Origin: an uncultured Flavobacteriaceae bacterium
GTDB taxonomy: Bacteria > Bacteroidota > Bacteroidia > Flavobacteriales > Flavobacteriaceae
Assembly: GCA_947494205.1 (NCBI GenBank)
Contig: CANLUH010000003.1
Coordinates: 124,001-188,000, forward strand
DNA: 64,000 nt
Direction of reading: 5' to 3'
The notes beneath the pieces were generated by a model that saw only the letters and a program-made list of their open reading frames with translations, had not been told where the DNA came from and made no database searches. Both the position numbers and the translations under genes were made by a program. Of the stretch, positions 48,454 through 59,311 are shown in pieces; position 1 is the first letter of the stretch, and every line of letters begins with the position of its first letter.

Positions 48454-48480
48454 AGTTTAAATATGAAAAAGGAAGTTTAG

Positions 48481-48509
48481 AAACAGGAGCATTTTGCTCC
48501 TGTTTTTTT
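48481..48509 (+). terminator. rho-independent terminator after lysC
   Basis: AAACAGGAGCA (48481-48491) pairs perfectly with TGCTCCTGTTT (48495-48505), loop TTT, followed by a run of seven T. The gap to 48685 holds no other clear signal. Confidence 0.9.
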
Positions 48510-48685
48510 GTGTTATATAAGTAACTAGTATTACTTAAATATAAACATATATTTAACATTTCTCTAGGGTAATGAACTTTTAATTGAGCACCATATATAT
48601 AGATTAATTAAAGTTTTTAATCTAGATGGAGGTAGCCGAAAATCCATGAAAAAGAGTAGGTCATCAATTAAAAAAACGTAACATT

Positions 48686-51583
48686 ATGTCAGACATTTTT
48701 AGATTTCACACTCTGCGTGGAGTAGAAGAACTCCCAAAAGCAGAATTAGACAAGATTTCAATTACAACACATGCTAATTCAAATAGGTCGCAATGGTTTA
48801 CAAGTTTAGAAGCATTCTGTAAATCGAAAGATTTTAAAGGAATGATTTCCTCAACATTAACCTTTTTAAAAAGCTCAAATGCAATTCATTCAATAAGTCA
48901 GTTAGATAGACAAATCAAACCAATTTTTGATTTTGTTGAAAGTAAAGGGCGTATTAAAACAAAAAAAGATAGAGACAAATTGTTGGCTCTTATTGACTTA
49001 AATGGATTACAAAATTATTTTAAAATTCAGCAAACAAACGGTTCTACTAGTAAATTTAGCTTGGATCTTCAGAAAATAGAAGACACCAAATTATCCCTAG
49101 CAATCTTAGGAAAGTTAGGGCATAAGGAGAATATTAACTACGAGTTACTTTTTAAAGTGTTTCACCTAACGAAACTAGTATTCGATAAGAGGAAAAATGT
49201 ATCATTATCAGAAATCACACAATTATTCGATAGAACGACAACATTACCTGCTTGCTTCTTTAAAGTAAATCCGTGTAGTAAAACATTAGATTCAGTACAA
49301 ATTCAGAGTCCGTTTAGTCATTTAGGAACCTTAGATTTTAGTGGAACTCAAATACTAAATGTAAGAGGTAAAACTGTAGACTTAAATGCTACAGGAGATA
49401 ATTATCATGCAACTCCAATAGGTGGGCAAAGTAGAACTTGTGAGTGTAATTGTGATGAATCTTGCAAGAACCAAAACCCTTGCGGAGCAACAATTAAACC
49501 ATTCATTACAGACTTAATGGTAGTACGTGAAGAGTTACATTGTTATAAATCTAAACATTTAGCCTATGTAGAAACTATTATGCTAGGTGAAGATAGAGAA
49601 AGAGTGCACCGTAATTTAGAAAGAACAGAAAATTATTCAGAAACAGAAACAACAGTTTCAAAATCTGAAACTAAAGACCATCAGGTTTCCGAAAGATTTA
49701 GTTTACAAACCGAGACGCAAAAAACAATAGAGTCCGATTTAAGTATAGATGCAGGAGTAACAGCTAGTACGTGGGGACCAAGTTATGAAGTGTCCACCTC
49801 ATTAAATGCAAGTTATCAAAACTCTAAATCAGAATCGCAACGTGTAGCAAGAGAGCAGGCAGTAGATATTACAGACCGAACGGTTAGAAAAATTCAAGAA
49901 ACGGTTAGAGAATTAAATACCGAAAAAAGAATTGTTGAAACAGAAGAGACTAATACACATTCTTTTAAAAATGCAGATGGTACAAAACATATTAACGGTA
50001 TGTATCAATTTATTAATGCAGAGTATAAAGGGCAAGTAATGAATTATGGAAAGCGCTTAATGTTCGAATTTGTATTGCCAGAGCCGTTACAAATGTATAA
50101 AGCGTTAATGAGCAAGGAGATTGCTCCATTTGGATTAATAGAGCCTAAAAAACCAGCCATTTCACCTAATGATATAGATGAAAATAACTATATAACTTTA
50201 GCTGAAACGTATAATGTGACAGGCATTCCAGCACCAGCAGAAAAATTCAAAACCCTGTCATTTTCATTAGGAAATTCCACTATTCTTAATAAAGATAACG
50301 AAGGGACAGCTTCAAGCGAAACGGTGACGATTGGAACGGTTCCCGATGGCTATACTGCTAAGGTTATTGACGTAGATTTTAGGATTATTGATAATGCTAC
50401 AGATACAGGAGGCGTAGGAAGTGCTCATTTATATATCGCAGGACTTGAAATTCCACAAGGTTATCAAACTGGAAGTCTAGCGTTTTCTGAAGGTGAACAA
50501 ATTTCTGGTTCACTTCTCTCTGTAGGAACCGTTTCCGTATCAGGTGCTGGTTTAGTTAGATGTGAGCGAAATGTAGGTGTGTATAACAATTGGAAGTTAG
50601 AAGTGTATAGTAAAATTATGCAAAAATATGAAGAAGAACTTAATGCATACAAAGCAGAGTTAGCCAGATATAATGCAACAAAAAATCAAAAAACAGAATT
50701 TGGTCGTAACCCATTTTTAAACAGAGAAATAGAAAGAACAGAATTAAAAAGAATGGCTATTTCTTATATTTCTAGTCAATTTTATGATCAATTTACGGCA
50801 TTAAAGAAAAACGTAAAACCCTGTGGATATCCACAAATGGATATAGAACAGGCAGAAAAAGACGGGAAATTTATTCAGTTTTTTGAGCAGTTGTTCGACT
50901 GGAATTTAATGACCTATTTATTTTACCCATACTTCTGGGGGCAAAAATGTGAATGGGCAGATAAAGTACAAGAAGACTCTGGAGATCCTCTATTCGATAA
51001 AGCTTTAATGGCAGGTGCAGGACGAGTGCAAGTACCAGTAAAATTAGGTCATGAACCATTGGCAATGCATTGGATTACTTTTGGAGAGATATGGCAAGGT
51101 GCAAACCAGCCACCAGTTCCAGGAAGTCCTTATTATATTTCGATGGCTCAAGAAATTAAAGAACAAAAAGGTGTTTTTTATACGGATAGAGAAGGTGTAC
51201 TAGAAGTTACAAACGGATTAACAGAAGTAACGCTTACTGGTTCGGCTAACTATTGGAACTTTACTGAAGATGCAATAGATGAATTAAAAATAGAAAATGA
51301 CATCGATAGAGAAATTATTCTAGATTGTATAACGTATCGTATTATAGATATACAAGAAGATGATACCGATGCAACACACGAAACTTGGAAGATTTTTATA
51401 GAGCGTGCTTACGAAGGTGAAAACCAAACGAATTTAAAATGGTCTACTGGCGCCTTATTTGTTGGTTCAGAATTCTTAATAACCGTACCTACTAATTTAG
51501 TATACCTAAAAAATAAAAAAGAAGCAGGTGCTTATGTAACAGAAGATTGTTTGCCGTGTTTTCCTCAACCTAAATGCGAGTAG
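48686..51583 (+). CDS. large uncharacterised protein, cytosolic or injected/particle-associated type
   Basis: A 965-residue protein without signal peptide or membrane helix. Residues 1-240 are mostly helical; a Cys-rich patch follows at about 250-265 (CECNCDESC). A central region (about 270-480) has S/T/E-rich helices with FSLQTETQKTIESDL, GVTASTWGPSYEV, DITDRTVRKIQETVRELN and ends YGKRLMFEFVLPEPL. Beta-rich domains make up about 500-640, a helix 650-690, and 770-960 is beta-rich. I recall similar central segments in unnamed large proteins of other phyla, never with a proven function. It is followed directly by a LysM protein, and the pair stands between two terminators. Confidence 0.7.
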   Translation: MSDIFRFHTLRGVEELPKAELDKISITTHANSNRSQWFTSLEAFCKSKDFKGMISSTLTFLKSSNAIHSISQLDRQIKPIFDFVESKGRIKTKKDRDKLLALIDLNGLQNYFKIQQTNGSTSKFSLDLQKIEDTKLSLAILGKLGHKENINYELLFKVFHLTKLVFDKRKNVSLSEITQLFDRTTTLPACFFKVNPCSKTLDSVQIQSPFSHLGTLDFSGTQILNVRGKTVDLNATGDNYHATPIGGQSRTCECNCDESCKNQNPCGATIKPFITDLMVVREELHCYKSKHLAYVETIMLGEDRERVHRNLERTENYSETETTVSKSETKDHQVSERFSLQTETQKTIESDLSIDAGVTASTWGPSYEVSTSLNASYQNSKSESQRVAREQAVDITDRTVRKIQETVRELNTEKRIVETEETNTHSFKNADGTKHINGMYQFINAEYKGQVMNYGKRLMFEFVLPEPLQMYKALMSKEIAPFGLIEPKKPAISPNDIDENNYITLAETYNVTGIPAPAEKFKTLSFSLGNSTILNKDNEGTASSETVTIGTVPDGYTAKVIDVDFRIIDNATDTGGVGSAHLYIAGLEIPQGYQTGSLAFSEGEQISGSLLSVGTVSVSGAGLVRCERNVGVYNNWKLEVYSKIMQKYEEELNAYKAELARYNATKNQKTEFGRNPFLNREIERTELKRMAISYISSQFYDQFTALKKNVKPCGYPQMDIEQAEKDGKFIQFFEQLFDWNLMTYLFYPYFWGQKCEWADKVQEDSGDPLFDKALMAGAGRVQVPVKLGHEPLAMHWITFGEIWQGANQPPVPGSPYYISMAQEIKEQKGVFYTDREGVLEVTNGLTEVTLTGSANYWNFTEDAIDELKIENDIDREIILDCITYRIIDIQEDDTDATHETWKIFIERAYEGENQTNLKWSTGALFVGSEFLITVPTNLVYLKNKKEAGAYVTEDCLPCFPQPKCE

Positions 51584-51585
51584 TT

Positions 51586-52914
51586 ATGTATGGAGAACAA
51601 ATTCAAGAACCACAAGGTTATTATGGAAAAAATGAAATAGAAACAGAAAGCGAGAAGTTTAACTTCTCGCATTTTGGAAACATAAATGATTTAGGGTTAC
51701 AAATTGAGCCTACGGAATTTATAGAATATGAAGTCCAACAAGGTGAAACTTTATACTATTTGGCAGGTTTTTTTAAATGCAGTGTACAACAAATTTTAGA
51801 ATTAAATAGTGATATAGATATAGACAAAAAGATAATTCGGGCTGGTGAAAAAATAAAGATTCCTTATACTAAAGAATTTGAAATTGCTGCTATGAGTCAT
51901 ATTGAAGGTGACTTGAGTTATTTTTTAGAAAATATTAGAAAAAATAAATCATACGAAGAATTATTAGAAGATCTTTTTAATAAAAAAATGTCTTTTATTG
52001 GTGCACAATTGGAAGCTTTAGATATTTTTAAAACAACTATCACTATTCCTAATATAAACGAGTTAATTCAGAAATCCGCAGGAGAAATCTTTATTAAGAA
52101 TATAGCAGCAAAAGTTAAAGATGAACTAACAGATTTATTTATAAAGGATCTTCCAATCGCTAGTGAGGCATATTCTCTTATAGAATCTTTTATTGTTGAT
52201 GTAGAAGAGGAACAGAAAAGGTTTATTGATGCAAATGAGCAGTATCAAATGAAGACTATTATAATAAAATGGCAAACTACGTTGGCTGATATAAGAAACA
52301 AACTATTATTTGATAAAACTCCATCAATAAAGAATAGGGTAAAGGTATATGAAAATTTAAATTCAAATGATTATCGTGATTTACTTTATGCTAATATCTA
52401 TTCACAAATAAATAAATATGAATTAAATAGAAGGCTTATTGAAACACGCTATGCATTTTTAAATTTGATTACTCAATGGATAAATGATTCTAGTTTCTAC
52501 TTTAAAGATTATTCAATCATGAAACAGGGTTTTAAAGACTCATATGTTTTATTTGGAATAAAGTTTAATGAGTTAAAACCCACATTAACAAGTTTTATTA
52601 TTAATTGCCCTTTTGCAAAAGAAATTGCTGCGCAATTGATTGTTTACTTTCCAGAAGGAGTTGATTTAAATTATTTTTTAGAATGTAGATTAATATCTAG
52701 ATGGGAAAGGAATGGTTGCCAAGTGGATTATTCTTATGAGCCTAAGAATAAAAAGTATGATACAAATTACAGCTGTTTATATATTTTTTCTCCTAAAAAT
52801 GATGAGCAAAAAGAAGCGTTGGAAAAGAAAATTAGAACTGAATATTTAGTCATAATTGATGCTATAAAAGATAAAAAATTTCCAACTATTAAAAACATTA
52901 GAGGTAAAGATTAA
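51586..52914 (+). CDS. LysM-domain protein of unknown function
   Basis: A 442-residue protein, start at 51586, two bases after the previous stop; an alternative ATG at 51574 overlaps it by 10 bases. A LysM domain lies at about 44-95 (YEVQQGETLYYLAG, then LELNSDIDIDKKI and GEKIKIPYT). The rest (about 110-440) is helical and has no family I recognise. There is no signal peptide, which is unusual for a peptidoglycan-binding LysM protein but usual for LysM proteins in phage tails and contractile injection systems. Co-transcribed with the 965-residue protein. Confidence 0.7.
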   Translation: MYGEQIQEPQGYYGKNEIETESEKFNFSHFGNINDLGLQIEPTEFIEYEVQQGETLYYLAGFFKCSVQQILELNSDIDIDKKIIRAGEKIKIPYTKEFEIAAMSHIEGDLSYFLENIRKNKSYEELLEDLFNKKMSFIGAQLEALDIFKTTITIPNINELIQKSAGEIFIKNIAAKVKDELTDLFIKDLPIASEAYSLIESFIVDVEEEQKRFIDANEQYQMKTIIIKWQTTLADIRNKLLFDKTPSIKNRVKVYENLNSNDYRDLLYANIYSQINKYELNRRLIETRYAFLNLITQWINDSSFYFKDYSIMKQGFKDSYVLFGIKFNELKPTLTSFIINCPFAKEIAAQLIVYFPEGVDLNYFLECRLISRWERNGCQVDYSYEPKNKKYDTNYSCLYIFSPKNDEQKEALEKKIRTEYLVIIDAIKDKKFPTIKNIRGKD

Positions 52915-52960
52915 ATTATATTATAAGTAGTATCTTTTTCTTTAATATTTATAATGAACT

Positions 52961-53001
52961 AAAAAGCTGCAAGTTTCGAAATTAAACTTGCAGCTTTTTT
53001 T
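52961..53001. terminator. bidirectional terminator
   Basis: GCTGCAAGTTT (52966-52976) pairs perfectly with AAACTTGCAGC (52984-52994) around a 7-base loop, preceded by A5 and followed by T7. It separates the LysM gene (plus) from the convergent aceA (minus). Confidence 0.9.
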
Positions 53002-53015
53002 GCTTTACCCTTATT

Positions 53016-54647
53016 TTAATAAGCAGGAACAAAATCGTTAGCTACGGTTTTTATTACCGTTTTCTCTTCAAATTGATTTGAAGTGTTTTTTGTACCTCCA
53101 GCTTTTAAAGCATTTTCCCCAGCAAAAAATGTTTTATGGTCATCGCCAAGATCAGAACCAGCCATTCTTTGGTGTTTTACACAAGCTACACCTTTTCGGA
53201 TTTCTTGCCTTTGTACCTCTTTTACATAAGCTAACATGCCATCGTTTCCAAAATAGTGCTCTGTTAAATCATTCATATGTAATGCTGTGGTATGATAAGT
53301 TGGCAGTGTAATTAAGTGGTGAAAAATGCCTGCTTCTCTTGCGCCATCTACTTGGAATGTTTTTATTTTTTGGTCAGCTCTAAAACATAATTCAGAACCG
53401 TCGTATTGCGCATCCATTAAATTATTTCTGTCGTAAGCAGTCATGTTTTCACCTTCTTCTAACATCTCATCATACGCTTGATTTCTAAAGTTTAAAGTCC
53501 AATTAAAAGAAGGAGAATTATTATATACCAATTTAGCATTTGGTACAACGCTTTTAATACGGTTCACCATGTTTGCAATTTGCTTCACGTTTGGCGTTGG
53601 GGTTTCAATCCATAATAAATCTGCTCCGTTTTGCAAGCTTGTAATACAGTCTAAAACCACGCGATCTATATTAGAGCCTTTTTTAAATTTATATAAGCCG
53701 TTAGCTAATCGTACTGGACGCACTAATTTATCATCTCTTTTAAGGAGTACATCGTCTTCTTTAGCCTCGTGTATAGCAATCTCTTCTGCTTCTACAAAGG
53801 CTAAATACTGAGAGGCTAAATCCCCAGATTTTTCACTTACAGGTAGTTTTTGAGTTAAACCAGCGCCTTCCGAGTCTGTTCTAGCTACTATAATACCATC
53901 TTCTACACCTAATTCTAAAAAAGCATATCTAATAGCGTTTAGTTTTGCAATAAAATCTTCATGCGGTACCGTTACTTTTCCATCTTGATGGCCACATTGC
54001 TTGGCATCTGAAACTTGATTTTCTATCTGGATAGCACATGCTCCAGCCTGTATCATCTGTTTTGCTAATAGATAAGTTGCCTCCTCATTACCAAAACCAG
54101 CATCTATATCTGCAATAATAGGAACGATATGGGTTTCGAAATTATCAATCTCATGTTGTACATCTTCACCATTATCTAATCTTCTAAACAAGTCGTTTAA
54201 TTCTATGGCATCTGCTTGACGTAAAAAATCATAAATTTCTTTAATTAATCCTGGAACAACTGTTTTTTCATGGATAGATTGATCTGGTAGTGGTCCAAAT
54301 TCCGATCGTAATGCTGCAACCATCCACCCAGAAAGGTATAAGTACTTTTTATCGGTAGTTTTATGGTGTTTTTTAACAGCAATCATTTTTTGCTGAGCCA
54401 CAAAACCATGCCAGCAACCAAGAGATTGTGTGTATTTAGATGAGTCTGCATCATACTCCTTCATGTCTTTTCTCATGATAGATGCAGTATATTTAGCAAT
54501 GTCTAGTCCTGTTTTAAAACGATTTTGGGTAGCCATTCTTGCTGCATTTTTAGGGTTTATAGCATGCCATGTATTGCCATACTTTTCTTTAAGTGATGTT
54601 AAAGCTTGTAATGCAGATTGATAATTACTTTGTGCTAAATTTTTCAT
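53016..54647 (-). CDS. aceA: isocitrate lyase
   Basis: Splits isocitrate into glyoxylate and succinate, the first step of the glyoxylate shunt. 543 residues, the long form of the family. The active-site loop is K-Q-C218-G-H instead of the more common K-K-C-G-H; the neighbouring IIADIDAGFGNEEATYLLAK and ARTDSEGA segments are standard. Second gene of the aceB-aceA pair, with an 85-base gap that includes a strong hairpin. Confidence 0.95.
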   Translation of the reverse strand: MKNLAQSNYQSALQALTSLKEKYGNTWHAINPKNAARMATQNRFKTGLDIAKYTASIMRKDMKEYDADSSKYTQSLGCWHGFVAQQKMIAVKKHHKTTDKKYLYLSGWMVAALRSEFGPLPDQSIHEKTVVPGLIKEIYDFLRQADAIELNDLFRRLDNGEDVQHEIDNFETHIVPIIADIDAGFGNEEATYLLAKQMIQAGACAIQIENQVSDAKQCGHQDGKVTVPHEDFIAKLNAIRYAFLELGVEDGIIVARTDSEGAGLTQKLPVSEKSGDLASQYLAFVEAEEIAIHEAKEDDVLLKRDDKLVRPVRLANGLYKFKKGSNIDRVVLDCITSLQNGADLLWIETPTPNVKQIANMVNRIKSVVPNAKLVYNNSPSFNWTLNFRNQAYDEMLEEGENMTAYDRNNLMDAQYDGSELCFRADQKIKTFQVDGAREAGIFHHLITLPTYHTTALHMNDLTEHYFGNDGMLAYVKEVQRQEIRKGVACVKHQRMAGSDLGDDHKTFFAGENALKAGGTKNTSNQFEEKTVIKTVANDFVPAY

Positions 54648-54694
54648 AATTTCGCTTTTAATTATTAAGGTTTTTCTAAGATTTTGATAATGAC

Positions 54695-54725
54695 GTCTCG
54701 TTAACTATTGCCGTAGTTGCGAGAC
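54695..54725 (-). other. hairpin between aceB and aceA
   Basis: GTCTCG (54695-54700) pairs with CGAGAC (54720-54725), and AACTA (54703-54707) with TAGTT (54714-54718), separated by small bulges. On the minus strand it is preceded by eight A and followed by GTCATT, so it is not a terminator for aceB. It may shape the message between the two genes. Confidence 0.5.
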
Positions 54726-54732
54726 ATTTTTT

Positions 54733-56331
54733 TTATATGTGGTTATATGCAGGTAGTGTTAAAAACTCATTAAATGTTTTTGCTAAAACGAGCGTGTTAA
54801 ACAGTTCGAAAGCCAATTTAAATTTGCTGTTTTTTATGTTTTCTTCTCCATATTCGGTGATAATCTTTTCAACTTCATCATCGAATAATTCTAAGTAAAG
54901 TTGCGTGTTTAGTTGTCTTCCGTCTTCAAGTGTAACTTCATTTTTTAACCATTGCCATACTTGTGTTCTAGATATTTCGGCAGTAGCAGCGTCTTCCATT
55001 AAATTATAAAGTGCTACAGCACCATGGCCACGTAACCAAGCTTCGGTATATAAAATACCAACATTAATATTTTTTCTAATTCCTGCTTCTGTAATAGTAC
55101 CTTCAGGAAGTTTAACTAAATCTTGCTCTGTTATTTTTATATCATCTCTAGTAACATGTAATTGGTTTGGCGTTGGCATGTGTTTATTAAACTCAGTCAT
55201 AGCTACAGAAACTAATGCTGGGTGAGCTACCCAAGTACCGTCGTGCCCGTTTTTAACTTCACGTTCTTTATCTAACCTTACTTTTTCTAAAGCAGCGGTG
55301 TTAGCTTTTTCATTGTTTTTAATAGGAATTTGTGCAGCCATGCCTCCAATAGCTAGGATACCTCTTTTATGGCATCGTTGAATAACAAGTTTGGAATAGG
55401 CATCCATAAAAGGTGTAGTCATTGTAACTTGGTCACGATTGGGCACAACGAAATTTTTATGATTTCTAAATTTTTTGATATATGAAAATATATAATCCCA
55501 ACGTCCACAATTTAAACCTACAATATGATCTTTAAGTTCGAAAATAATTTCATCTAATTGAAAACTAGCAGTAATAGTTTCAACTAAAACCGTTGCTTTA
55601 AAAGTGCCTTCAGGAATATTAAGGTAGTTTTGCGCAAATACAAAAACAGCATTCCACCAACGGGCTTCTGTATAATGTTCCAATTTAGGAAGATAAAAGT
55701 ATGGAGCCGTACCATTTTCTAGCATCACTTTTGTATTGTGAAACACGTAGAGGCCAAAATCTACTAAGCTACCAGAAGCTTCTTCATTATTTATTATAAT
55801 ATGTTTTTCGTTAAGGTGTAATCCTCTAGGTCTTACCAGAAGCGTCGCTATATTGTCCTTTAATTGATATGTCTTTTGTCTTTTTGTATCTACTAATGCA
55901 ATTGTTTTTTTATTAGCATCTATAAGGTTTTGTTGTCCTTGAATGCAGTTTTCCCAAGAAGGCGCATTGCTATCTTCTAAGTCTGCCATAAAGGTTTTTG
56001 CTCCAGAGTTTAGAGCATTTATAATCATTTTTCTGTCTACCGGTCCAGTAATTTCTACACGTCTATCTATAAGATCGTGAGGGATATTACCAGCGGTCCA
56101 GTCTCCTTCTCTAATCGTTTTTGTTTCTTCTGGAAATTGAGGAAACTTTCCGCTATCGAAAATCTTTTGCTGTGTCTCACGATTTTTTAATAAGGTTAAC
56201 CGTTTTGCATTGAAGTTTTCATGAAGAGCAGTAATAAATTCTAAAGCTTCATCAGTTAAAATTTCTGGATAATAGTTTTTTACAGAACTAGCGAACTGAA
56301 CTTTAGGTTGTTTTAAAAGAGTATGTTCCAT
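54733..56331 (-). CDS. aceB: malate synthase A
   Basis: Condenses glyoxylate with acetyl-CoA to malate, completing the glyoxylate shunt. 532 residues, standard for the A isoform. Landmarks are TFMADLEDSNAPSWENCIQG, LNCGRWDYIFSYIK and the C-terminal NVGILYTEAWLRGHGAVALY. The frame begins earlier at 56355, but the family start is the ATG at 56331 (MEHTLLKQPKVQFAS). Divergent from the RamB/ScfR-like regulator over a perfect palindrome. Confidence 0.95.
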   Translation of the reverse strand: MEHTLLKQPKVQFASSVKNYYPEILTDEALEFITALHENFNAKRLTLLKNRETQQKIFDSGKFPQFPEETKTIREGDWTAGNIPHDLIDRRVEITGPVDRKMIINALNSGAKTFMADLEDSNAPSWENCIQGQQNLIDANKKTIALVDTKRQKTYQLKDNIATLLVRPRGLHLNEKHIIINNEEASGSLVDFGLYVFHNTKVMLENGTAPYFYLPKLEHYTEARWWNAVFVFAQNYLNIPEGTFKATVLVETITASFQLDEIIFELKDHIVGLNCGRWDYIFSYIKKFRNHKNFVVPNRDQVTMTTPFMDAYSKLVIQRCHKRGILAIGGMAAQIPIKNNEKANTAALEKVRLDKEREVKNGHDGTWVAHPALVSVAMTEFNKHMPTPNQLHVTRDDIKITEQDLVKLPEGTITEAGIRKNINVGILYTEAWLRGHGAVALYNLMEDAATAEISRTQVWQWLKNEVTLEDGRQLNTQLYLELFDDEVEKIITEYGEENIKNSKFKLAFELFNTLVLAKTFNEFLTLPAYNHI

Positions 56332-56382
56332 GGTCTTAATTTTTTTACACCACAATATTAAAACAAAGATTTTAAAAAAACA

Positions 56383-56396
56383 AGCGAACGTTCGCT
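56383..56396. promoter_or_regulatory. palindromic operator between aceB and its regulator
   Basis: AGCGAACGTTCGCT is a perfect 14-bp palindrome. Further TTCGC half-sites are at 56408-56412 and 56426-56430. It lies 52 bases upstream of the aceB ATG and 64 bases upstream of the regulator ATG. Confidence 0.65.
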
Positions 56397-56414
56397 AAAA
56401 GTTTTTTTTCGCTT

Positions 56415-56447
56415 TTTGTTTTACATTCGCAAAAATGATTATTTTTG
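56415..56447 (+). promoter_or_regulatory. promoter of the RamB/ScfR-like regulator
   Basis: TTTG (56415-56418) and TATTTTTG (56440-56447) are separated by 21 bases, a good match to TTTG-N19/20-TAnnTTTG. The ATG at 56460 follows 12 bases after the -7 box, so the leader is very short. The TTG used by the longest frame (56445) is inside the box. Confidence 0.62.
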
Positions 56448-56459
56448 CTTTTAATAATT

Positions 56460-57938
56460 ATGGAACAAGACTATATAAAACTCATATTTGGTTTAAAACT
56501 TAAACAAATACGTACCGATAAAAATTTATCGTTATTTGGTTTGTCTAAACTTTCGGGTTTATCAAAATCGTATTTAAACGAAATAGAAAAAGGGAAGAAA
56601 TACCCGAAGCCAGATAAAATTGCTATTCTTTCTGAGAAATTAGACGTGCCTTATGATCAAATGGTGTCTCTAAAACTGGATAAAAATCTAGCACCAATAG
56701 GAGAATTGCTACAATCTAAAATTTTAAAGGAAATCCCTCTAGAATTATTTGGTATTAAAGAAAGTAATTTAATAGATATTATTGCTAATGCACCAGCAAA
56801 AGTAAATGCATTTATTAGTACTATTATAGAAATAGCGCAGCATTATAGCTTTAGTAGAGAAAGTTTCTTTCTTGCATCTGTACGCTCATACCAAGAAGCA
56901 AATAATAATTATTTTGACGATTTAGAGCAGCAGGTTTTAAAGTTTTCGAAAGCTTATCAAGTAGATTTATCTAAGCCAATAACATCTAAAGAGATAGAAG
57001 ATATTTTAGTTGAAGAATACGGATATAGTATTAAAGAAAATGAATTAGATAAGCATGAGGCTTTAGAGAATTTGCGTTCTGTTTTTGTACCTAAAACGAA
57101 AACATTATTACTGGCAAGCGGAATAGATGAGGCACAGCGAGTTTTTATTTATGCTAAGGAGATTGCTTATAATTTTTTAGAGATTACAGATCGATTATAT
57201 ACTTTTCCATGGATAAAGTTTGAAGTATTTGAGCAGGTGCTTAATAATTTTTATGCATCATATTTTGCAGGAGCTTTAATTATACCTAAACAGAAGTTAA
57301 CATTAAAATTAGAAACTGTTTTCGAAAAAGAAGTGTTTAATAAAGCCCAATTTGTTGCTATTTTAGAATCTTTTAATGCTTCTCCTGAATCGTTTTACCA
57401 GCGGCTAACTAATATTTTACCCAAAGCCTTTAATCTTCAGAATTTATTCTTTTTGAGATTTACCCATAAGGCAGGTAGCGAAAGGTTTTATTTAAAAAAA
57501 GAATTGCATTTATCGCATCAACATTCACCGCACGCTAATGAAACTAATGAACATTACTGTAGGCGTTGGGTGTCTTTAAAAGTTTTAAAAGATATTAGTA
57601 AAAGTAAAAAGACACATGAGTTCGATGTACAAATTTCTAATTACGATAGTGATAATACTAAGTATTTAGTATTGTCTTCTGCAACTAAAGACCCTTTTAA
57701 AGACAATCAATATCGCAGTATAAGTGTAGGCTTGCTAATAAATAAACAATTAGAGCGAAAAATTAAATTTTTAAAAGATAAAAATATTACTGTAAAAAAC
57801 GTTGGTGTAACTTGCGAACGTTGTGCTATTAAAGATTGTAGTATAAGGCAAGCACCAGCGGTTGTTTTGGAAAAAGCAGCAAAAAATAAAAAAACAGAAA
57901 AGATTGTAGAAGCTTTAAATACAAAGTTTGAATTTTAA
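56460..57938 (+). CDS. RamB/ScfR-like short-chain acyl transcriptional regulator
   Basis: A 492-residue regulator with an XRE helix-turn-helix at about 5-65 (LKLKQIRTDKNLSLFGLSKL, then SKSYLNEIEKGKKYPKP). The long C-terminal region has the family's IrrE-like and DUF2083-like parts: EAQRVFIYAKEIAYNF, YFAGALIIP, and a C-terminal Cys group GVTCERCAIKDCSIR. RamB and ScfR-type regulators control acetate, propionate and glyoxylate-shunt genes. Divergent location next to aceB-aceA supports that role. Start chosen at 56460. Confidence 0.9.
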   Translation: MEQDYIKLIFGLKLKQIRTDKNLSLFGLSKLSGLSKSYLNEIEKGKKYPKPDKIAILSEKLDVPYDQMVSLKLDKNLAPIGELLQSKILKEIPLELFGIKESNLIDIIANAPAKVNAFISTIIEIAQHYSFSRESFFLASVRSYQEANNNYFDDLEQQVLKFSKAYQVDLSKPITSKEIEDILVEEYGYSIKENELDKHEALENLRSVFVPKTKTLLLASGIDEAQRVFIYAKEIAYNFLEITDRLYTFPWIKFEVFEQVLNNFYASYFAGALIIPKQKLTLKLETVFEKEVFNKAQFVAILESFNASPESFYQRLTNILPKAFNLQNLFFLRFTHKAGSERFYLKKELHLSHQHSPHANETNEHYCRRWVSLKVLKDISKSKKTHEFDVQISNYDSDNTKYLVLSSATKDPFKDNQYRSISVGLLINKQLERKIKFLKDKNITVKNVGVTCERCAIKDCSIRQAPAVVLEKAAKNKKTEKIVEALNTKFEF

Positions 57939-57970
57939 CTAAGTTTAGCTTTGTATAACTATAAAAATAA

Positions 57971-58018: not shown

Positions 58019-59311
58019 TTAAGAATTCATAATATCCTCAATCTCATCGGCTTCAATAGGAATATTACGCATTAAATTAAAAGGATCTCCGTTTTCTTGT
58101 ATTACCACATCGTCCTCTAAACGAATACCAAACCCTTCATCAGGAATATAAATACCAGGTTCTACAGTAAATACCATATTGGCTTGCATCGGTTCGGTTA
58201 AAATACCATAATCATGCGTGTCTAATCCCATGTGGTGAGACGTACCATGCATAAAATATTTTTTATAAGCTGGCCAGTTTGGATCTTCATTTTGTACATC
58301 GGCTTTATCAATTAAACCTAAACCAAGTAATTCACTCGTCATTAATTTACCTACCTCTACGTGGTAATCTGCCCAAATAGTTCCAGGAGTTAATAGTTTT
58401 GTTGCAGCATTTTTTACTCTATTAACAGCATTATAAACCTCTTTTTGTCTGGCAGTAAATGTTCCAGATACAGGAATAGTACGCGACATATCGCTAGAAT
58501 AATTAGCATACTCTGCACCAACATCTAATAGTATTAAATCACCGGCTTTACACTGCTGATTATTTTCTATATAATGCAATACATTAGCGTTATTACCAGA
58601 AGCTACAATGGGTGTGTAAGCGAATTTTTTAGAACGATTTCTTAAAAACTCGTGCATAAACTCTGCTTCAATTTCAAACTCCCAAACATCAGGTTTTACA
58701 AAGTTTAAAATGCGACGGAAGCCTTTTTCAGTAATATCACAAGCCTTTTGTATTAAATCTAATTCAATTGGATCCTTTACAGAGCGTAAACGTTGTAAAA
58801 TAGGATTACTTTTTGCTACACGATGCGCAGGATATTTATCTTTTAACCATTTTGTAAAACGGTCTTCGCGAGTTTCAGTTTCCACATTAGCACGGTAATG
58901 CTCGTTAGTATTAATATATACGGTTTCGCATTGCGACATAATTTCTGCCATAACCTTATGCAAATCCTGTAACCAATACACGGTTTTTATACCACTTGTA
59001 GTAAAAGCCGCATCTTTAGTTAGTTTTTCGCCTTCCCAAACAGCAATATGTTCGTTAGTTTCTTTTAGAAACAATAGTTCACGATTTTTCGGATTGGGAC
59101 AATCTGGAAATAATACTAATATACTTTCTTCTTGGTCTACACCGCTTAAGAAAAAGATGTCTCTGTGCTGCTCAAACGGTAAGGTACTATCTGCGCTTAC
59201 TGGGTAAATATCGTTAGAGTTAAAAACAGCGATACTACTCGGTTGCATTTTTGCAGCAAAGTTTTTACGGTTTTTAACAAAGAGGCTACTGTCTATTCTG
59301 TGGTATTTCAT
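58019..59311 (-). CDS. pepP: Xaa-Pro aminopeptidase (aminopeptidase P family)
   Basis: A 430-residue M24 metallopeptidase that removes N-terminal residues before proline. An N-terminal creatinase-like domain (1-170) precedes the pita-bread domain with the metal ligands: Asp in LLDVGAEYANYSSDMSRT (two Asp), His in HGTSHHMGLDTHD, Glu in FTVEPGIY and Glu in RLEDDVVI. No signal peptide, so cytosolic. A GNAR-loop hairpin repeat lies just upstream at 59331. Confidence 0.93.
   Translation of the reverse strand: MKYHRIDSSLFVKNRKNFAAKMQPSSIAVFNSNDIYPVSADSTLPFEQHRDIFFLSGVDQEESILVLFPDCPNPKNRELLFLKETNEHIAVWEGEKLTKDAAFTTSGIKTVYWLQDLHKVMAEIMSQCETVYINTNEHYRANVETETREDRFTKWLKDKYPAHRVAKSNPILQRLRSVKDPIELDLIQKACDITEKGFRRILNFVKPDVWEFEIEAEFMHEFLRNRSKKFAYTPIVASGNNANVLHYIENNQQCKAGDLILLDVGAEYANYSSDMSRTIPVSGTFTARQKEVYNAVNRVKNAATKLLTPGTIWADYHVEVGKLMTSELLGLGLIDKADVQNEDPNWPAYKKYFMHGTSHHMGLDTHDYGILTEPMQANMVFTVEPGIYIPDEGFGIRLEDDVVIQENGDPFNLMRNIPIEADEIEDIMNS

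What the first reader, a model, noticed from the sequence alone, without database searches (positions are those of the whole stretch)
48686..52914. Isolated two-gene unit: 965-residue unknown plus signal-less LysM protein
Seen: the genes are two bases apart (or overlap by ten), bounded by strong terminators at 48481 and 52966. Neither has a signal peptide. The large protein has a Cys patch near residue 250, a long S/T/E-rich central segment and several beta domains. A LysM domain without export signal is typical of phage-tail and contractile-injection baseplates. Inference: a particle-associated, injected or tail-related module, or a self-contained effector system. No sheath, tube or ATPase genes are within the window, so if it belongs to such a machine the rest is elsewhere.
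Basis: partly seen in the sequence, partly recalled or inferred. Interest (0 to 1): 0.66.

Follow-up and report, generated by a model that had tools for sequence, protein, structure and literature searches.

The report
Two-gene polymorphic toxin: carrier plus effector
The two genes look like one small toxin kit: a large carrier protein of an unnamed family found in bacteria and archaea, followed by an exchangeable effector gene that in relatives of the carrier can be a deaminase, glutamine deamidase or phospholipase toxin, here replaced by a protein with a sugar-binding LysM domain.

Summary
In detail: an isolated two-gene unit (965 aa; 442-446 aa with one LysM) between two strong terminators, with no export-signal-like N-terminus. 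The large protein has no match in Pfam, NCBIfam, PHROGs, PADLOC or PDB sequences. It belongs to a widespread unnamed family (50 members aligned; Bacteroidota, Campylobacterota, Proteobacteria, Actinomycetota, Cyanobacteria, a haloarchaeon). In 46 of 50 cases a same-strand gene lies within 450 bp downstream. That partner is exchanged: in the closest relative the carrier is 79% identical, but DNA identity falls to background at its stop codon. Elsewhere partners end in Toxin-deaminase, Gln_amidase or patatin domains, often with SUKH immunity genes: a polymorphic-toxin arrangement. All carriers share an amphipathic beta-hairpin pattern of transmembrane length (P0001 354-375), suggesting a beta-pore or translocon (inference; AlphaFold2 models were poor). 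Release is probably by lysis or injection: some relatives sit beside holin, CHAP and tail-fibre-like genes, and carriers co-occur with contractile-injection tube genes (9/15 versus 49/284 genomes, p=4e-4), though never next to them. Two congeners lack the unit at this site. What P0002 does is unknown.

The parts
48479..48507 (+). Intrinsic terminator upstream of the unit (end of aspartokinase gene)
   Evidence: 13 pairs, 5 GC, T run
48686..51583 (+). P0001, carrier protein of an unnamed family (965 aa)
49439..49483 (+). Cys patch (C252-C266), shared only with the closest relatives
   Evidence: alignment
49505..51175 (+). Family core (about residues 274-830), shared across bacteria and an archaeon
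49745..49810 (+). Amphipathic beta-hairpin (residues 354-375), two strands of about 9-10 residues around a Gly turn; candidate membrane-spanning hairpin
   Evidence: alternation in 50 members; periodicity
49838..49966 (+). Long amphipathic helix following the hairpin (residues 385-427)
   Evidence: low-confidence model
50237..50572 (+). Jelly-roll-like beta domain (residues 518-629), poorly conserved in sequence
   Evidence: pLDDT mostly 78-92, VIA Z up to 8.7 to generic jelly rolls
50867..51169 (+). Best conserved block (FFEQxFxW...YPYFW...DPLF...G.ARV..P)
51586..52914 (+). P0002, exchangeable partner/effector gene, 442 aa from the likelier start (446 aa from ATG at 51574)
51727..51864 (+). 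LysM domain of P0002
52961..52999 (.). Bidirectional intrinsic terminator at the end of the unit
   Evidence: 16 pairs on both strands

Best explanation
The unit is a two-gene polymorphic toxin. P0001 is the conserved carrier. It is made and folded in the cytoplasm and leaves the cell by lysis or inside an injection particle. It most likely works at the target membrane: the conserved amphipathic hairpin (residues 354-375) of several subunits would form a beta-barrel pore or translocon, while variable regions (the N-terminal part and the jelly-roll domain) would bind the partner or a receptor. P0002 is the exchangeable effector carried by P0001; its LysM would let it hold peptidoglycan, chitin or another GlcNAc glycan at the site of action. 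Shown by sequence: the pair, the family, the swapping, the toxin domains and immunity genes in relatives, the hairpin pattern. Inferred: pore or translocon, delivery of the partner through it, the role of LysM, and the export route.
For: Family and spread. No named family. Same-strand gene within 450 bp downstream at 46 of 50 cores. Partner swap at the nearest relative: carrier 79% identical (78%), DNA identity 83% up to the stop codon, then 54-63% against a shuffled mean of 61%, and partner proteins unrelated. Toxin domains at partner C-termini: Toxin-deaminase (L048p above cut-off; L081p just below; L046p weak), Gln_amidase (L054p); patatin partners (L045p, and the annotated L037p); SUKH immunity after L081p. 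Partners L054p and L116p share only the C-terminal toxin region at 45% identity. Hairpin: positions 354/356/358/360/362 and 367/369/371/373/375 are 64-92% hydrophobic with 0-10% charge, intervening positions polar or Gly, in 50 members including an archaeon. Lysis genes (CHAP endolysin, holin) near some units; a lysis cassette releases a very large cytoplasmic toxin in Yersinia entomophaga (PMC10847048).
Against: Both AlphaFold2 models are poor (mean pLDDT 43 and 53) and give the hairpin only low confidence, so the pore is not shown. Fold matches are to the jelly-roll alone and generic. Partners larger than a pore would need unfolding. The window unit itself has no immunity gene, no lysis cassette nearby, and P0002 has no recognisable toxic domain and no full-length relative in the sets searched, so its being a toxin rests on its position.
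Confidence: 0.5

Rival explanations
1. P0001 and its partner are cargo of an extracellular contractile injection system encoded elsewhere in the genome: P0001 would be a loading/adaptor effector packed in the particle, and the LysM partner a co-effector.
For: Own genome has an eCIS-like locus on another contig with sheath, two tube proteins and a PAAR-like protein. Carrier genomes have sheath in 9/15 versus 41/284 (p=1e-4) and tube in 9/15 versus 49/284 (p=4e-4). The conserved N-terminus (about xLFRFxTxRxP) is hydrophilic with aromatics in the first residues, like the described eCIS signal, and LysM occurs in predicted eCIS toxins such as EAT14 (PMC11297309).
Against: No eCIS gene beside any family locus although the query works on control loci; 6 of 15 carrier genomes lack detectable sheath and tube; no DUF4157 in the partners scanned; genome size and relatedness could produce part of the association.
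Confidence: 0.25
2. It is a structural part of a phage tail, tailocin or baseplate, as the first reader leaned towards.
For: LysM without signal; tail-fibre/spike-like and lysis genes near some relatives; four IMG/VR contigs carry the gene.
Against: No match in annotated phages, no meaningful PHROG for the carrier, no tail genes near most copies, several divergent copies per genome with different partners.
Confidence: 0.06
3. A two-gene system of other purpose, such as an anti-phage or surface-structure module, in which the partner is a variable sensor or ligand.
For: P0002 itself shows no toxic motif; patchy distribution and horizontal mobility also fit defence.
Against: No PADLOC match; deaminase, deamidase and patatin partners with SUKH genes are the mark of toxins; no recognisable NTPase or nuclease in the pair.
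Confidence: 0.12

Closest known systems
Polymorphic toxin systems (Zhang et al. 2012, PMC3482391)
   Same: Modular, swapped C-terminal toxin domains (Toxin-deaminase, papain-fold deamidase), SUKH immunity, cassette-like spread
   Different: The conserved trafficking part is a separate gene and belongs to an unannotated family; the whole partner gene can be exchanged
Binary AB toxins with a separate beta-pore component (iota/C2/CDT type)
   Same: Two genes, candidate amphipathic beta-hairpin in the large component, separate effector; weak Foldseek hits to Ib and CDTb
   Different: No Binary_toxB match, no signal peptide, fold matches restricted to a generic jelly roll, effectors far more varied
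Tc toxin operons with lysis cassette (type 10 secretion; PMC10847048)
   Same: Large cytoplasmic toxin without signal; holin/endolysin genes beside some relatives
   Different: No TcA/TcB/TcC or RHS domain match; lysis genes at a minority of loci and not at the window unit
eCIS-associated toxins (PMC8213781, PMC11297309)
   Same: No Sec signal, LysM or toxin domains, genome co-occurrence
   Different: Not encoded near eCIS; no DUF4157 found
TANFOR polymorphic toxins of Bacteroidetes (PMC7073777)
   Same: Same phylum, Tox-deaminase and SUKH genes
   Different: TANFOR proteins are single large proteins, mostly with signal peptides and linked to T9SS; TIGR02542 not matched here

Membership tests
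Polymorphic toxin system | Conserved trafficking part combined with exchangeable toxin domains | tested here: met
   (at family level)
Polymorphic toxin system | Cognate immunity gene downstream | tested here: inconclusive
   Met at several relatives (SUKH: L081 over cut-off; L046, L049, L052, L055, L082, L113, L115 by BLAST); not seen at the window unit
Polymorphic toxin system | Recognisable toxin domain in the partner | tested here: inconclusive
   Met in relatives; P0002 shows LysM only
Binary AB toxin B component | Binary_toxB sequence family | tested here: not met
   No such Pfam match in 27 members
Binary AB toxin B component | Beta-barrel-forming amphipathic hairpin | tested here: inconclusive
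   Sequence pattern present; structure models too poor
eCIS effector | Encoded in or next to an eCIS cluster | tested here: not met
   with positive control
eCIS effector | Loaded in the particle | not testable with these tools
   Needs particle proteomics
Phage tail/baseplate LysM protein | Homology to phage or tail structural families | tested here: not met
   only the LysM itself matches weakly
TANFOR polymorphic toxin | TIGR02542 domain at the N-terminus | tested here: not met
   No NCBIfam match in 27 members
Type 10 secretion (lysis-cassette) toxin locus | Holin + endolysin + spanin next to the toxin | tested here: inconclusive
   Present at L081 and L054 and in part at L049, L052, L060, by eye also L144; absent at the window unit

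The most novel reading that the evidence does not exclude
A previously undescribed cross-domain class of two-component polymorphic toxins: a beta-barrel translocon protein that accepts many unrelated effector proteins encoded in the next gene, made without any secretion signal and released by phage-derived lysis genes or an injection particle.
Probability: 0.3. Interest if true: 0.82.

Novelty: new variant of a known kind. Interest (0 to 1): 0.62.

Why it matters
The family databases searched (2025-2026 editions) hold no name for this family, although it spans several bacterial phyla and at least one archaeon and carries known toxin domains as partners. If the carrier is a translocon with interchangeable cargo in a separate gene, a large unseen reservoir of effectors and immunity proteins can be read off simply by looking one gene downstream, and how they cross membranes becomes a testable question.

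Tried and rejected
Sequence searches of both proteins in Pfam, PHROGs, NCBIfam, PADLOC and PDB gave only LysM and spurious hits (RILP in P0001 is below its cut-off). Phage records gave nothing. More IMG/VR scans added one contig to the first three, so the alignment allowed for structure prediction stayed at 6-7 sequences and the models are poor. Foldseek hits to iota toxin Ib and C. difficile CDTb concern a generic beta domain in low-confidence models and were not taken as evidence of kinship; binary-toxin chains did not appear among the 50 VIA rows shown. BFVD gave mixed low-score matches. An attempt to survey Campylobacterota genomes failed for lack of a handle. The structural-part reading was rejected because copies vary in partner and context. 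The isocitrate lyase gene gave no DNA match in the congeners, and that search had no positive control; gene order was judged instead.

Full report
WHAT IS THERE. The window lies in a 5.06-Mb genome, by its relatives a member of Flavobacteriaceae (inference from L032). The two ORFs, their close spacing and both terminators are confirmed. The second gene most likely starts at 51586, because the two closest relatives keep a two-base gap between stop and ATG. P0002 has one LysM (residues 52-97 of the longer form). Neither protein has a hydrophobic transmembrane segment.

THE LARGE PROTEIN IS A MEMBER OF AN UNNAMED FAMILY. No Pfam or NCBIfam family covers it or its 26 aligned relatives, and PADLOC has none for it. 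Homologues occur in 15 of 299 genomes of the family by single-sequence search, in 16 of 395 genomes drawn from the phylum by profile, in a Campylobacteraceae MAG at 40% identity over the full length, and on replicons of Tsukamurella, Streptomyces, Ensifer, Sinorhizobium, Cupriavidus, Aulosira and the archaeon Natronorubrum. The host genome has four copies on four contigs. The family shares an N-terminal motif (about xLFRFxTxRxP), a core (P0001 274-830) and, in many members, a C-terminal PTxL...LP motif; the part between motif and core is variable. In a maximum-likelihood tree the window protein, L032, L033 (Campylobacterota) and L043 form a supported clade (98/99), and an alphaproteobacterial and a Bacteroidota sequence group together (98/94), so transfer between phyla is likely (long branches make deep nodes unsure).

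THE PARTNER GENE IS EXCHANGED. At 46 of 50 core genes a same-strand gene lies within 450 bp downstream. The nearest relative (carrier 79% identical) shows the swap directly: DNA identity is 83% in the last 100 bases of the carrier gene and then 54-63% in successive 100-base blocks, against a shuffled mean of 61%; the encoded partners (446 and 556 aa) share no similarity. In many Bacteroidota the partners are related to one another over their first 500-600 residues and differ at the C-terminus. C-terminal domains include Toxin-deaminase (L048 partner above cut-off, L081 partner 28.2 against 29.6 bits, L046 partner weak) and Gln_amidase (L054 partner, shared at 45% identity with the C-terminus of the otherwise different L116 partner); whole partners are patatins in L045 and, as annotated, in the archaeal L037. 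SUKH-type immunity genes follow some of them (L081 above cut-off, L082 below it; others by BLAST). L043's partner has an HExxH-like HESKH motif (by eye). This is the signature of polymorphic toxins (PMC3482391). The window's P0002 has none of these domains; its role as effector is inferred from position. No immunity gene follows it, which would fit a target other than kin bacteria, but this is inference.

HOW THE CARRIER MAY WORK. Across 50 members, P0001 positions 354, 356, 358, 360, 362 and 367, 369, 371, 373, 375 are mostly hydrophobic (64-92%) and almost never charged (0-2%, 10% at 354), while the positions between are polar or Gly, with a Gly-rich turn at 364-366; periodicity analysis agrees and shows amphipathic helices before and after. 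Strands of this length and pattern are what a beta-barrel pore-forming hairpin looks like (established knowledge of such toxins). The only well-modelled part is a jelly-roll-like domain at 518-629 plus the following helix; its matches (best VIA Z 8.7) are to many unrelated jelly rolls and carry no function. So the pore or translocon is a hypothesis with sequence support, not a result.

ROUTE OUT OF THE CELL. Nothing carries an evident export signal. Two routes have circumstantial support. (a) Lysis: CHAP endolysin and Phage_holin_4_1 genes lie near the L081 unit of the same genome, similar genes near L049, L052, L054 and L060 and, by eye, L144; M15 peptidase and patatin genes precede the Chryseobacterium-type units. 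A lysis cassette releases the very large Tc toxin in Yersinia entomophaga (PMC10847048). (b) Injection: the host genome encodes an eCIS-like cluster on contig C4 (sheath, two tube proteins, PAAR-like protein), and carrier genomes are enriched in sheath (9/15 vs 41/284, p=1e-4) and tube genes (9/15 vs 49/284, p=4e-4). I did not correct for genome size or phylogeny; tube-positive carrier genomes are larger (median 4.6 vs 3.5 Mb). No family locus has eCIS genes in its flanks. Tail-fibre/spike-like genes lie near a minority of loci. The window unit has neither lysis nor fibre genes near it, so its own route is undecided.

MOBILITY. In the two other genomes held of the genus, aspartokinase is followed directly by the counterpart of window gene 58019-59311; the two-gene unit, isocitrate lyase, malate synthase and the regulator at 56445-57938 are all missing at that site. 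The window stretch of about 9.5 kb is thus a gain here or a loss there, and the unit is accessory.

VERDICT. Family-level toxin reading about 0.85; this particular pair as a toxin about 0.7; pore/translocon mechanism about 0.4 (my estimates).

Noticed in passing
window 48454-57940: Relative to two congeners (L142, L143) this stretch (the unit, isocitrate lyase, malate synthase and an XRE/ScfR-like regulator) is absent from between aspartokinase and gene 58019-59311, suggesting a glyoxylate-shunt island next to the toxin unit.
   Followed up: partly
L114:13410-18519: Array of at least five short proteins with the start GELTxAIKGGLRKSAKEVLEH, alternating with small genes, beside a family unit: looks like spare toxin/immunity cassettes.
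   Followed up: no
L046:6345-6692, L114:6990-7361, L117:12017-12385, L118:7515-7883, L121:12415-12783, L145:2965-3312: A small protein of about 115-123 aa (MSQVK...WQHEKVLPYIL...GSRxR, nucleotidyltransferase-like by eye) sits between carrier and partner genes.
   Followed up: no
L082, L046, L053, L054, L055, L145: Units sit at a recurrent chromosomal site beside a divergent XRE regulator, an rnpA-like gene and an S41-peptidase-like gene (names by eye) in several genomes: an integration hotspot.
   Followed up: partly
L081:8403-8903, L051:4631-5134, L115:2812-3309, L144:9583-10089, L053:17912-18415: A gene of about 167 aa, endonuclease V-like by eye (untested), recurs near family units.
   Followed up: no
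L128:7372-10847: A family gene split into two overlapping ORFs (774 and 404 aa) with a partner gene kept; could be decay or assembly error.
   Followed up: no
L083 (G000 C4:264000-283900): eCIS-like cluster of the host genome (sheath, tubes, PAAR-like) with no family member nearby; a second weak sheath hit lies at G000 C6:103119.
   Followed up: partly
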